From positions 6,532,850-6,596,849 of the forward strand of contig NZ_JACBZA010000001.1 of assembly GCF_013408535.1 (NCBI RefSeq): 64,000 nt of DNA, given 5' to 3'. Source of the DNA: Actinopolymorpha cephalotaxi (lineage in GTDB: Bacteria; Actinomycetota; Actinomycetes; Propionibacteriales; Actinopolymorphaceae). Shown in pieces: positions 2-26,938 of this stretch (positions are counted from its first letter, which is position 1; the number at the start of each line of letters is the position of its first letter). Both the position numbers and the translations under genes were made by a program. Below the pieces are notes generated by a model. It was not told the DNA's origin. It searched no databases and was given only the letters and a program-made list of their open reading frames with translations.

Positions 2-1333
2 GCGTTCCAGGGCCGGAAGGGCCGGCAGTCACCGAACGCGCCGGGTCGTACGGTCACCCTCGCGGGCTTCCTGCTCGGCACCGTCTCCGGCTCGGGTACG
101 GCGACCGCGGTCAGCCTGGGCTCGGTGTCGTGGCCGATCCTGCGCCGCGCGGGCTACGGTCGCGAACAGGGCGGTGGGGTGCTGGCGGCGGCCGGCATCG
201 GGGCGATCCTGTCGCCGCCGACCCTGGGCGCGGCGGCGTTCATCATCGCCGAACTCCTGCGCACCAGCTATCTCACCGTGCTGGTGTACGCGATCATCCC
301 GACACTGCTCTACTACGTCGGCATCATTCTGGCGATCGAGATCGACGCCCGCCGGCACGGCGCCCGCGCAGTGGACATCCCGGCCGGGTCGGCGCGCAAG
401 CTGTTGCTGCGCTTCGGCTACCACTTCGCGTCGCTGTTCCTGATCGTGGCGTTCATGGCGGCCGACATCCCGCCGTTCCGTGCGGTCGTGTACGCCACGA
501 TCCTGCAGTTCCTGTTCTCGTTCCTCGACCCCGCGCACCGGATGGGCCCGCGCCGGCTGCTGGAGGCGCTGGCCGCGGGCACCCGCAGCGTCCTTCCGGT
601 GGCGGCGGTGTGCGCTGCGGCCGGCATCATCGTCGCGGTCGTGACCCTCACCGGCCTGGGCCTCAACCTGGCCGGGATCATCATCGACGCGGCCCAGGTC
701 GTCGGCGACCACCCGACGCTGGTGCTGGTGCTGACCGCGGTGTTCGCGGCGGTCGCGGTGGCGGTCCTCGGTCTCGCCGTACCCGTCACCGCGTCGTTCA
801 TCATCGCGTCGGTCATCATCACCCCGGCGCTGGTGGAGCTCGGCGTGAGCCGGCCCGAGGCGTACATGTTCGTCTTCTACTACGCCGTGCTGTCCGAGGT
901 CAGCCCGCCGACCGCCCTGGCCGCCGTCGCCGCGGCCGCGATCACCGGCGGCAATCCGATCCGGACGATGTGGGCCACCTGGCGGTACGCGCTGCCGGCG
1001 TTCCTGGTGCCGTTCGCGTTCGTGCTCACCGACAACGGCTCCGCCCTGCTGGCACAGGGGCCGATCCTCGGCATCCTCGCGGCCACCGCGGTGTCGGTGC
1101 TCGCCGTCGCCGCACTCGCCGCGGCCACCGGCGGCTGGATCGTCGGGCCGGCCAACGCGCCGGAAAGGGTCCTTGCCTTTATTGCCGCACTCCTGCTTCT
1201 CTACCTGGAACCGCTCACCGCCGGGATCGGCGGCGCTCTGATCGGCGTCGCCGTCGTCCTCCATCTGCTCCGGCGCCGCCTGCGTGGCAGGCCTGGCGCG
1301 CCGGTGCCGGACACGCAAGGGAGCACCACATGA
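2..1333 (+). CDS. TRAP transporter fused permease, TAXI type (5' end outside window)
   Basis: This is the C-terminal part of a large multi-pass membrane permease that moves an organic acid or similar solute using an ion gradient, paired with a periplasmic-type binding protein. The frame is open from base 2, so the start lies upstream. The conserved stretch GTVSGSGTATAVSLGSVSWP and the following GIGAILSPPTLGAAAF segment are typical of the fused DctQM-like permeases of TAXI systems. About 440 residues are visible, dominated by hydrophobic segments and ending in a basic tail. Its TGA overlaps the ATG of the binding protein (ATGA), so the two are translationally coupled. The substrate cannot be told from sequence. 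Confidence 0.9.
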   Translation, partial: AFQGRKGRQSPNAPGRTVTLAGFLLGTVSGSGTATAVSLGSVSWPILRRAGYGREQGGGVLAAAGIGAILSPPTLGAAAFIIAELLRTSYLTVLVYAIIPTLLYYVGIILAIEIDARRHGARAVDIPAGSARKLLLRFGYHFASLFLIVAFMAADIPPFRAVVYATILQFLFSFLDPAHRMGPRRLLEALAAGTRSVLPVAAVCAAAGIIVAVVTLTGLGLNLAGIIIDAAQVVGDHPTLVLVLTAVFAAVAVAVLGLAVPVTASFIIASVIITPALVELGVSRPEAYMFVFYYAVLSEVSPPTALAAVAAAAITGGNPIRTMWATWRYALPAFLVPFAFVLTDNGSALLAQGPILGILAATAVSVLAVAALAAATGGWIVGPANAPERVLAFIAALLLLYLEPLTAGIGGALIGVAVVLHLLRRRLRGRPGAPVPDTQGSTT

Positions 1334-18328: not shown

Positions 18329-18404
18329 GCGCTCGTAGCTCAACGGATAGAGCATCTGACTACGGATCAGAAGGTTGGGGGTTCGAATCCCTCCGAGCGC
18401 GCCA
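18329..18404 (+). tRNA. tRNA-Arg (anticodon ACG), CCA encoded
   Basis: The cloverleaf is complete: acceptor GCGCTCG (18329-18335) pairs with CGAGCGC (18394-18400); the anticodon stem TCTGA/TCAGA encloses CTACGGA with ACG at 18362-18364; the T loop GTTCGAATCC is standard. CCA is encoded at 18402-18404. The integrase pseudogene begins 13 bp past the 3' end, which marks this tRNA as an integration site. Confidence 0.97.
18390..18402. repeat. Candidate att core at tRNA-Arg 3' end
   Basis: CCTCCGAGCGCGC covers the 3' acceptor arm and recurs exactly at 26434-26446. A tRNA 3'-end repeat with an integrase gene just inside is the usual layout for tyrosine-recombinase elements. Thirteen bp is short, probably because an IS481 end abuts the distal copy. 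Confidence 0.55.
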
Positions 18405-24104: not shown

Positions 24105-24255
24105 GCATCGTCTGTTGGAACCGTTCGACCTTCCCGCAGGTGGTGGGGTGGTTGGGGCGGGAGTTCTTCTGGGTCACGCCGAGCTTGCGTAGTTCGGTTT
24201 CCAGCCCGTTGCGGCCCTTGCCGCCGGACAGTCGGGTGGTGAAGACCATGCCGTT
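24105..24255 (-). pseudogene. IS481 transposase remnant, C-terminal part
   Basis: Reads NGMVFTTRLSGGKGRNGLE then NSRPNHPTTCGKVERFQQTM, the DDE-domain end of an IS481 transposase, after which homology stops. The missing front half is at 25979-26363: the IS110 element sits exactly between ...STLTD and NGMVF. Confidence 0.85.
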
Positions 24256-24281
24256 GAGTTCCTAAGGGATGTCAAGCTCGT

Positions 24282-25676
24282 TCAGGCTGCTCCGGGTGTC
24301 GTAGCGTGGGTGGTGGACGGGCCGGTTGACGGAGCGCGTGGCGACTCCTTACTTCGCCGGTCCGTTCCTGCGTTCGTGGTGGTTCGGCGCCTGGCCCGCA
24401 GGTCCTTGGGGATCGCGTAACGCTCGGCGATGATCGTTCGGGCTTGGTCGATAGTGACTGCGCTGCCGTCGACGTCGCGCAGTTGGTAGGGCTGCCCGGC
24501 GCGCCAGCAGGCGATGATCCGGGTGAGCAGGGTCGTGGCGATGTGGCAGAGCGCAGAGTTGTGGTGCTTGCCGGCGTTGACCATGAGCCGGTGGTATTTC
24601 GCGGCCAGGGTGGGGTCGATCCGGCGGGCTTGGCTGGCGGCCATGAAGAGGGCTTGGCGCAGAACGGCGTCGCCGCGCTTGGTGGGGCCGCCGTGGCGTC
24701 CGGTGAGTCCGGAGGAGTCGAGGATCGGCACCAAGCCGGTGAACGCACGGGCGCCCGCGAGTGAGTCGAAGCGGTTCGGGTCGCCGAGGCGGCCGAGGAT
24801 CGCGGCTGCGGTGATGGTGGCAACGCCCGGGGCGGAGGTCAGGATGCCGTTCGGGTCGGCGGCCTTGAGCACCAGCGTGGCCCGCTCGTCGAGGTCCTTG
24901 AGCTCCTCGCTCAGCTGCAGTGCGAGGCGGGCTTCGATCGCGATGTCCTCGGCCAGGTCGGGGTAGTCCAGTTCACCGTCGGACCACAGCTCGAGGGTTT
25001 CCCTGGCGGCGGCCAGCAGTGCGTCGGCGTGTGGTTCACCCCAGGCGCCGCGGGAGTGCCGGTGACAGAACCGAGCCAGCCGGACGCGGCCGAGACGCTT
25101 GACGACGTGGGGGTCGGCGTATCCGGCGGCGAGGAACTTCAACACGGTGCGGTTGCCCAGGTCGGCGCCGATCGCGGAGTGCCATGCCGGGCCGAGCAGC
25201 TCCAGTAGCGTGTCCAACCGGGCCAGGCTCTGGGTGCGGCGATGGACCAGTGTGGAGTGCAGCTTCGCTGCACGCTTGAGCGCATCGCCGGGTCCGAGGC
25301 CCTGTTCGAGGTGCAGCCCGTCCGGGTGCAGCATCGGTAGTCTGGCCAGCAGCTGGGAGTCCAGCCGATCGCTCTTGGTGTGTTTGGCGTAGTAGTTGCG
25401 CAGGTCCGCCGACCGCTCCGGCGGCACGAGCACGACCCGGGCGCCTTTGCGCCGGAACCAGGCGGCCAGCGGGACCCAGGCGTTACGGGTGGGCTCCATC
25501 ACCACCAGCACCTCGCCCGGGTCGGCGTCGTCGGGCAGGCTCGACCACAGCTGGTCCAGGTCGGGTGGGGTGGTGCGGAAACGTCGGCCTGACCAGATCA
25601 ATCGGCCTTGCTCATCGGCAAGGCTGACCTGATGCGCAGCCCGACACGCGACGTCGATGCCTAGGCGAAGCGGCAC
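24282..25676 (-). CDS. IS110-family DEDD transposase
   Basis: A 464-residue RNA-guided recombinase. The N-terminal RuvC-like DEDD domain starts LRLGIDVACRAAHQVSLAD and includes MEPTRNAWVPLA and KSDRLDSQLLARL. The C-terminal Tnp domain has LTSAPGVATITAAAILGRLG, then RFDSLAGARAFTGLVP and GPTKRGDAVLRQALFMAA with the catalytic Ser region. I chose GTG 25676 because AAGGAG lies 6 bases upstream; an upstream in-frame start would run through the non-coding leader. No stop or frameshift is seen, so the element may be active. Confidence 0.92.
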   Translation of the reverse strand: MPLRLGIDVACRAAHQVSLADEQGRLIWSGRRFRTTPPDLDQLWSSLPDDADPGEVLVVMEPTRNAWVPLAAWFRRKGARVVLVPPERSADLRNYYAKHTKSDRLDSQLLARLPMLHPDGLHLEQGLGPGDALKRAAKLHSTLVHRRTQSLARLDTLLELLGPAWHSAIGADLGNRTVLKFLAAGYADPHVVKRLGRVRLARFCHRHSRGAWGEPHADALLAAARETLELWSDGELDYPDLAEDIAIEARLALQLSEELKDLDERATLVLKAADPNGILTSAPGVATITAAAILGRLGDPNRFDSLAGARAFTGLVPILDSSGLTGRHGGPTKRGDAVLRQALFMAASQARRIDPTLAAKYHRLMVNAGKHHNSALCHIATTLLTRIIACWRAGQPYQLRDVDGSAVTIDQARTIIAERYAIPKDLRARRRTTTNAGTDRRSKESPRAPSTGPSTTHATTPGAA

Positions 25677-25739
25677 TTCCAGCTCCTTCTCATGACGACA
25701 GCAGTGCGACACCGACTGCCTGCTGCCGACCGAGAACGA

Positions 25740-25930
25740 CCGCACCGGACATTCGCTAACAGGGATCCGCCGCGGGCGTTCTCGACGGTCGCCGGGTTCC
25801 TAACAGGGCGGCCCTTTCTCCGGCAGAGGCCCCGCTCACCAACGTGATCAACAGGCAAGGAGTCGCGAGGCGCGCTCCGATCGGTGAAGCAACGACGGTG
25901 AGCAGGTGCCGGACCCGTCGATCCTCACAC
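25740..25930 (-). ncRNA. Candidate IS110 bridge RNA
   Basis: The leader of the transposase can fold into two loops. Loop 1 is closed by GCTCACC/GGTGAGC (25897-25903 with 25834-25840), with an apical hairpin at 25859-25878. Its 5' side has TCACCGA (25881-25887), identical to the left target next to the core, and its 3' side has CGTTG (25840-25844), complementary to core plus right target. Loop 2 is closed by CCGGA/TCCGG (25819-25823 with 25745-25749). Its 5' side has TTAGGAAC (25796-25803), identical to the element's 3' end, and its 3' side has GAATG (25750-25754), complementary to core plus the 5' end. Borders are approximate. Confidence 0.6.
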
Positions 25931-25978
25931 CGCCGGCCGGACAATCCGGGGACCTTCGAGCTTCACCCAGCTTGAATG

Positions 25979-26363
25979 TCGGTGAGGGTGGACGCCGGGA
26001 TCTGGTGTGTGGCAACGGCTTGCCGGGAGCTGGCGAGCACGGCGGGGCCGGTGACCGGGCGGTGGGCGGTGACCGAGAGCGCGTAGCGGGAGTGGTCTGC
26101 CAGCACTCGTTCGGCAGGTCCGCTGCGAACCGGATGTAGGAGGAACGCGGCCGCACGATCAACTCCACCGTGCCCGGCGGCGCCGCGGTTGGTGAGGTCT
26201 TCGGCCGCCGTGATCGCGGCTCGAACGCCGCCTGCCCCTCCGCCCGGTAGCGGGCCACCAGCCGGCTCACCCAGCTTTGGGACACCCCGTAATCCCGCGC
26301 CACCGCGCTTTGACTACGGCCCTCGACAACGACAGCGGTGACCACAAGACGCGCCTTCGACAT
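25979..26363 (-). pseudogene. IS481 transposase remnant, N-terminal part
   Basis: Starts MSKARLVVTAVVVEGRSQSA with the helix-turn-helix DYGVSQSWVSRLVARYRAEG of IS481 transposases, then loses about 60 residues before SSYIRFAADLPNECWQ and shifts frame before DHSRYALSVTAHRPVTG. It ends at ASTLTD where IS110 is inserted. It was therefore already decaying or has decayed since. Confidence 0.85.
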
Positions 26364-26497: not shown

Positions 26498-26708
26498 TCA
26501 TTGACAACCGTTCCCATCTGGCGGCCGGCTTGCTAACGCTTCTGCCAACAAGAGGTCGTCGCGACGGGGCAGCTGGTCGGCCTCGTCGGGCGCCTGGTCC
26601 TCCTCCTCGACCTGGCGGGCGAACACCTCCGCAACGCCGACCGCGTGCTGGCGGATCACGTGCGCGTAGACCCGAAGCGTGATCGACGGATCCGCATGCC
26701 CCAGCAAC
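26498..26708 (-). pseudogene. C-terminal fragment of a second tyrosine recombinase
   Basis: LLLGHADPSITLRVYAHVIR is the box around the Tyr nucleophile of phage integrases, followed by an acidic tail with EVFARQVEEEDQAPDEADQ. The rest of the protein is missing and the frame runs into unrelated sequence. It is distinct from the integrase at 18.4 kb (GHASITITMDLYGHLY there), so a second element was once here. Confidence 0.7.
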
Positions 26709-26710
26709 AG

Positions 26711-26938
26711 GCGCTGGAGATCGTCGCAGCGCCCGGCATGGAGTGCGTCCTCATCGGGGACGCACTCACCGACATCGAAGTCGCCCACGCGACAGGAGTC
26801 CACAGCGTCGGCTACGCCAAGTCACCCGACCGGACCCCCAACCTCCTCGCCGCGGAACCCGACGCCCTTGTCGACAGCATGGAAGACATGGCGATAGCCA
26901 TCCGGACCATCCAGCCACCAGGCGGGGCTGCGCCCTAG
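26711..26938 (+). pseudogene. C-terminal fragment of a HAD-family phosphatase
   Basis: GMECVLIGDALTDIEVAHAT followed by GVHSVGYAKSPDR matches motif IV (GDxxxD) and the end of HAD hydrolases. The N-terminal Asp nucleophile domain is absent; instead the sequence is joined to the integrase remnant on the other strand. It marks a deletion or insertion junction. Confidence 0.65.

What the first reader, a model, noticed from the sequence alone, without database searches (positions are those of the whole stretch)
25677..25978. IS110 leader folds into two guide loops that match its own target and ends (bridge RNA)
Because the element splits an IS481 gene, target and donor are known. On the transposase strand the target is CTCACCGA-CA-ACGG and the joined ends would be TTAGGAACT-CA-TTCAAG. 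The leader has a loop closed by GCTCACC/GGTGAGC with TCACCGA on the 5' side and CGTTG on the 3' side, and a second loop closed by CCGGA/TCCGG with TTAGGAAC on the 5' side and GAATG on the 3' side. The left guides equal the left halves, and the right guides pair with core plus right half, as known for IS110-group bridge RNAs. The same logic fits both loops independently.
Basis: partly seen in the sequence, partly recalled or inferred. Interest (0 to 1): 0.82.

Follow-up and report, generated by a model that had tools for sequence, protein, structure and literature searches.

The report
Bridge RNA aiming at transposase genes
A small jumping gene carries a guide RNA whose two loops match the place it jumped into and its own joined ends; its relatives use the same guide mostly to land in the most conserved active-site stretch of other jumping genes.

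Summary
The 302-nt leader (25978-25677, minus strand) of an IS110-group element encodes a two-loop bridge RNA, supported here by sequence comparison and covariation only; no transcript or activity was measured. A second identical copy in the same genome sits at a second TCACCGA-CA-ACGGC site. About 50 homologous leaders show covariation of LTG, RTG, RDG and handshake guide with each element's own target or ends. A compensated target stem (98% of cells paired) and a split -35/17-bp/-10 promoter at the RE-LE junction (35 of 36) support it further.

Two corrections. The donor loop is more likely closed by GAGNNCGA/TCGNNCTC than by CCGGA/TCCGG, which shows no covariation.

More interesting: in this clade the guides spell the DNA of Thr-Asp-Asn-Gly, the conserved second-Asp motif of rve/DDE transposases. 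19 of 24 insertions split such genes (mostly IS481-like). Of 43 empty guide-matching sites examined, only 1 lies in such a gene. Whether this is aim or survivorship is open. The mechanism is known; target choice and natural re-aiming are the new parts.

The parts
24257..25978 (-). IS110-group element: one core CA plus LE, transposase gene and RE
   Evidence: both junctions read directly; 100% identical second copy G000:C1:3339691-3341426 with different flanks
24282..25676 (-). IS110 recombinase, 464 aa, GTG start after GAGAAGGAG
   Evidence: Pfam DEDD_Tnp_IS110 4.3e-21 and Transposase_20 1.2e-20; PDB relatives ISCro4 and IS621
25979..25985 (-). left target TCACCGA in the split IS481-type gene
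24251..24256 (-). core CA plus right target ACGG at the right junction
25831..25906 (-). target-binding loop: stem CCTGCTCACC/GGTGAGCGGG enclosing LTG, apical hairpin and RTG
   Evidence: 98% of cells paired, 7 of 10 pairs with changes on both sides in 15 homologues
25881..25887 (-). left target guide TCACCGA
   Evidence: covariation scan z=10.5, guide table
25859..25878 (-). apical hairpin GGAGCGCG..CGCG-A-CTCC between LTG and RTG
   Evidence: 90.5% of cells paired, 5 of 8 pairs with changes on both sides
   Evidence: scan z=7.0; covaries in L004, L007, L013, L023, L032, L114
25732..25820 (-). donor-binding loop: probable outer stem GAGAAAGG/TCGTTCTC and apical stem GACCG../..GGATC
   Evidence: outer stem 67.9% of cells paired (4 of 8 pairs with changes on both sides), apical stem 94.8% (5 of 9)
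25796..25803 (-). left donor guide TTAGGAAC, equals the element's right end
   Evidence: little variation, so no covariation test
25750..25754 (-). right donor guide GAATG, pairs with CATTC at the left end
   Evidence: covaries with CATTC/CATTT/CATCT ends
25748..25749 (-). handshake guide TC, pairs with target GA just before the core
   Evidence: both positions match in nearly all of 39 loci; L032 has TG where its target has CA
24270..24275 (-). TTGACA, -35 half of the split promoter in the right end
   Evidence: TTGAC in 35 of 36 right ends
25969..25974 (-). CAAGCT, -10-like half (YANNNT) in the left end, exactly 17 bp away in the circle
   Evidence: YANNNT at 17 bp in all 35 with TTGAC

Best explanation
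This is an IS110-group insertion sequence with a left-end bridge RNA. When the element excises as a circle, its ends join (TTAGGAACT-CA-TTCAAG) and complete a -35/-10 promoter that would transcribe the leader. The RNA would bind the DEDD recombinase. [quoted passage not shown] Its second loop (LDG TTAGGAAC, RDG GAATG) pairs with the joined ends, and handshake bases help strand exchange at the CA core. In this clade the target guides spell the Thr-Asp-Asn-Gly codons of rve/DDE transposases, so most surviving insertions sit in other insertion sequences and destroy their transposase. Shown: sequence matches, covariation, conserved structure, split promoter, target distribution. Inferred from published IS621 work: transcription, binding, pairing in the recombination complex.
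For: Pfam IS110 domains; relation to IS621 and ISCro4; two identical copies at the same 14-bp site in different genes; blind covariation scan; guide-by-guide table with within-clade shuffles, LTG and RTG p<=5e-5 in the diverse clade. Compensatory cases: L004 target CAATGG with guide CTATTG; L023 target CAGGGGG with guide CCCCCTG; L032 target CATCCGC with guide GCGGATG, and target CA before the core with handshake TG; L022/L031 ends CATCT with guide AGATG. Stem covariation. Split promoter in 35 of 36. 19 of 24 insertions in rve-type genes, most of them confirmed by Pfam and the rest by motif, against 1 of 43 unoccupied guide-matching sites.
Against: No transcript or activity data. Shuffles do not fully remove phylogeny; within the TDNG clade alone, with the two divergent members left out, covariation is not significant (LTG p=0.06, RTG p=0.08) because the targets hardly vary. 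L045, L113 and L017 match poorly on at least one guide. The LDG is nearly invariant. Rfam has no matching family. The core is CA, not IS621's CT.
Confidence: 0.93

Rival explanations
1. The guide is not kept for hitting transposons. The element inserts at any ACCGACAACGG-like site, and insertions in host genes are lost by selection, so those in transposases are what we see. (This rival concerns target choice, not the bridge-RNA mechanism.)
For: Matching sites in host genes are common (13 unoccupied in the own genome; 42 of 43 sampled), and some insertions are in host genes: a Ser/Thr kinase (L106), a secreted chitinase-like protein (L111).
Against: The clade keeps the TDNG-matching guide across diverse Actinomycetota hosts although re-aiming is possible (L023, clade B); this does not exclude survivorship.
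Confidence: 0.5
2. One reading: RTG is CGTTG at 25844-25840 and the donor loop is closed by CCGGA/TCCGG.
For: CGTTG pairs with CAACG without G.U; the stem is 94.7% pairable.
Against: CGTTG overlaps the covarying stem and is replaced by CGTGG, CGCGG, ATGCTGG in homologues with the same target; it gives no scan signal. The stem shows no change on both sides, and its CCGGA half also belongs to the target-loop outer helix, which covaries A-U/G-C at one pair.
Confidence: 0.04
3. The leader is an ordinary structured 5' UTR or regulator of the transposase; guide matches are remnants of shared ancestry.
For: The leader is structured and lies directly upstream of the gene.
Against: Guides track targets in unrelated genes in independent changes; the split promoter exists only in the circle.
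Confidence: 0.03

Closest known systems
IS621 bridge RNA (IS110 group; PMC11208160, PMC11208158)
   Same: LE-encoded RNA, target loop before donor loop, each with stem, left guide, apical hairpin, right guide; core included in the pairing, handshake bases, split promoter at RE-LE junction, DEDD recombinase
   Different: core CA instead of CT; protein 464 aa instead of about 328; right target guide longer; target is a coding motif of transposases instead of REP elements
ISEc21 seekRNA (IS110 family; PMC11187229)
   Same: upstream non-coding RNA matching both target strands, natural re-aiming among relatives
   Different: different target and sequence; activity shown there, not here
IS4321/IS5075 (IS1111 group; Partridge and Hall 2003, cited in PMC11187229)
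   Same: site-specific insertion into other mobile elements
   Different: they target Tn21-family terminal repeats and, as IS1111 members, carry their RNA in the right end; here the target is the catalytic motif inside the transposase gene and the RNA lies in the left end

Membership tests
IS110 group of the IS110 family | DEDD RuvC-like domain plus Transposase_20 domain | tested here: met
   Pfam 4.3e-21 and 1.2e-20
IS110 group of the IS110 family | left non-coding end much longer than right, RNA in the left end (unlike IS1111) | tested here: met
   about 302 nt against about 25 nt
IS110 group of the IS110 family | no target duplication beyond a short core, target shared by copies | tested here: met
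   both copies share core CA and target TCACCGA-ACGGC; homologues alike
IS110-group bridge RNA | two internal loops whose 5' sides equal the left half and 3' sides pair with core plus right half of target and donor | tested here: met
   LDG match only, no covariation
IS110-group bridge RNA | conserved structure with compensatory changes | tested here: met
   whole structure 89.6% of cells paired, 22 pairs with changes on both sides, 0 of 500 shuffles as high
IS110-group bridge RNA | promoter completed at the RE-LE junction of the circle | tested here: met
   TTGAC and YANNNT at 17-bp spacing in 35 of 36; transcription itself not tested
IS110-group bridge RNA | CT core as in IS621 | tested here: not met
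   core is CA in all but L005 and L011, whose left copy reads TA; CT marks IS621 and its near relatives, and is not a defining feature of the whole group
IS110-group bridge RNA | RNA expressed, bound by the recombinase and required for recombination | not testable with these tools
   needs RNA-seq and recombination assays

The most novel reading that the evidence does not exclude
The guide of this clade has been kept by selection because it hits the codons of the second catalytic Asp (TDNG) of rve/DDE transposases: an RNA-guided hyperparasite that finds nearly any member of a protein family of competing transposons through its least changeable DNA stretch, gaining a harmless, mobile and repeated landing site.
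Probability: 0.4. Interest if true: 0.72.

Novelty: new member of a known kind. Interest (0 to 1): 0.5.

Why it matters
It adds a clade of actinobacterial bridge-RNA elements with a CA core and clearly readable guides, including natural re-aiming events (L004, L023, L032, L114) that show which bases set the target. It also suggests a way for a programmable element to persist: aim the guide at the invariant codons of other transposons' active site. That makes target choice in IS110 evolution testable: aim versus survivorship.

Tried and rejected
Rfam gathering scan: no match except one tRNA. IMG/VR viral contigs: no relative. A secondary scan signal at GTCGTTG just 5' of the LTG (z about 4-5) was judged phylogenetic and left open. 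Plasmid relatives (53-57% identity) added only distant copies. The long branch of L026 in the tree is a frameshift artefact of my translation. Paper searches for IS110 elements targeting IS481 or transposase motifs found none, but ISfinder, supplements and preprints were not available, so absence is not shown.

Full report
What is there. On the minus strand, 25978-24257 is an IS110-group element. The recombinase gene (25676-24282, 464 aa, GTG start) has DEDD_Tnp_IS110 and Transposase_20 domains and is related by sequence to IS621 and ISCro4 of the PDB. The left non-coding end is 302 nt, the right end about 25 nt, the arrangement of the IS110 group rather than IS1111 (PMC11208160). The element splits an IS481-type transposase gene. 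Rejoined, the target reads CTC ACC GAC AAC GGC, i.e. Leu-Thr-Asp-Asn-Gly. The same genome holds a second, 100% identical copy at G000:C1:3339691-3341426 whose flanks differ except for TCACCGA-CA-ACGGC, again at a TDNG motif of an rve-type gene. The host is probably an Actinopolymorpha: a genome of the same genus carries the copy that is L010, from Actinopolymorpha pittospori.

Homologues. Searches of GTDB genomes, relatives and plasmids gave about 50 distinct leaders at 49-86% protein identity. Right ends (TTAGGAACT|CA) and left ends (CA|TTCA, CA|TTTA or CA|TCTA) are so conserved that most junctions can be read. A protein tree puts the TDNG-targeting elements in one clade A (support 88/97; L026 falls outside only because my translation of it was frameshifted), with the re-aimed L023 nested inside it; clade B has other targets.

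Guides. A scan of all alignment columns, with no position assumed, compared leader segments with each element's own target against shuffled pairings. The best left guide is exactly TCACCGA of this leader (z=10.5), the best right guide GCCTGTT(G) (z=7.0). With guides fixed at these places, within clade B alone LTG matches 5.67 of 7 against 3.68 expected, and RTG 5.0 of 6 against 3.64, p<=5e-5 each. In clade A every readable RTG pairs over 6 positions. Independent compensatory cases: L004 (nearest relative) has target CAATGG and guide CTATTG; L023 has target CAGGGGG and guide CCCCCTG; L032 has CATCCGC and GCGGATG; L114 has CAAGCT and AGCTTG. On the donor side RDG follows the left end (GAATG with CATTC, AGATG with CATCT; p=5e-5). 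The two bases after it, the handshake guide described for IS621 (PMC11208158), match the two target bases before the core in nearly all elements, and change together in L032.

Structure. In 15 clade A leaders the target-loop stem has 98% of cells paired and 7 of 10 pairs with changes on both sides. The apical hairpin between the guides, a donor-loop outer stem (GAGNNCGA/TCGNNCTC) and a donor apical stem are also compensated; the whole structure exceeds all 500 shuffles on all five measures and all slid controls. The donor outer stem is the weakest (67.9% of cells), at least partly because the alignment slips there. The order stem, LTG, hairpin, RTG, then stem, LDG, hairpin, RDG is that of IS621.

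Promoter. Joining RE to LE gives TTGAC and, at exactly 17 bp, YANNNT in 35 of 36 elements, the split-promoter arrangement reported for IS621. No transcript was measured.

Where the clade lands. Translating across 24 clade A junctions, 19 fall in rve-type transposase genes at the DNG motif, confirmed by Pfam rve, rve_3 or related models in most cases and by motif in the rest (L002, L043, L051, and L001 at sub-cut-off score). The five others are a Ser/Thr protein kinase (L106), a chitinase-like secreted protein (L111) and three unclear (L004, L007, L010). As control, 43 unoccupied matching sites in eleven host genomes (13 ACCGACAACGG sites of the own genome, 30 sampled GACCGACAACGG sites of ten others) include one in an rve gene; for occupied against unoccupied sites in the same genomes (11 of 15 against 1 of 43) Fisher p=7e-8. 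So matching sites lie nearly always in ordinary genes, while surviving insertions lie mostly in transposases. Loss of harmful insertions explains this at least in part; whether the guide itself is kept because it hits transposons cannot be decided here. L114 of clade B, with a different RTG, sits in an IS6/IS240-type DDE gene at VTDKLGSY.

Limits. Everything is computational. Shuffles do not remove phylogeny, and within the TDNG clade without its two divergent members covariation is not significant; the weight rests on clade B and on the individual compensatory cases. LDG is matched but nearly invariant. No held paper describes IS110 elements aimed at this motif, but ISfinder, supplements and preprints could not be searched.

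Noticed in passing
window 1026-1038 (+): An unoccupied exact copy of the target TCACCGACAACGG lies in a transporter-like gene (TRAP-type by appearance, 125-1333).
   Followed up: yes
L023: A relative in a Cyanobium MAG has both target guides changed together with its target: natural re-aiming inside clade A.
   Followed up: partly
L114: A clade B relative is inserted in an IS6/IS240-type DDE gene at its VTDKLGSY motif with a matching right guide AGCTTG.
   Followed up: partly
L106, L110, L111, L112: One genome (G915) has four copies: two in IS481-type genes, one in a Ser/Thr kinase gene, one in a chitinase-like gene.
   Followed up: partly
L074 and L076: Two copies in one genome (G096) whose transposase frame contains one TGA stop codon; not examined whether it is decay or misprediction of the frame.
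   Followed up: no
window 25892-25898 (-): GTCGTTG just 5' of the LTG also resembles the reverse complement of the right target (secondary scan signal, z about 4-5); probably shared ancestry, unexplained.
   Followed up: no
window 26498-26803 (-) and 18329-18401 (+): An ORF with a piece resembling a tyrosine recombinase C-terminus, and a tRNA gene about 8 kb away; possible remnant of an integrated element.
   Followed up: no
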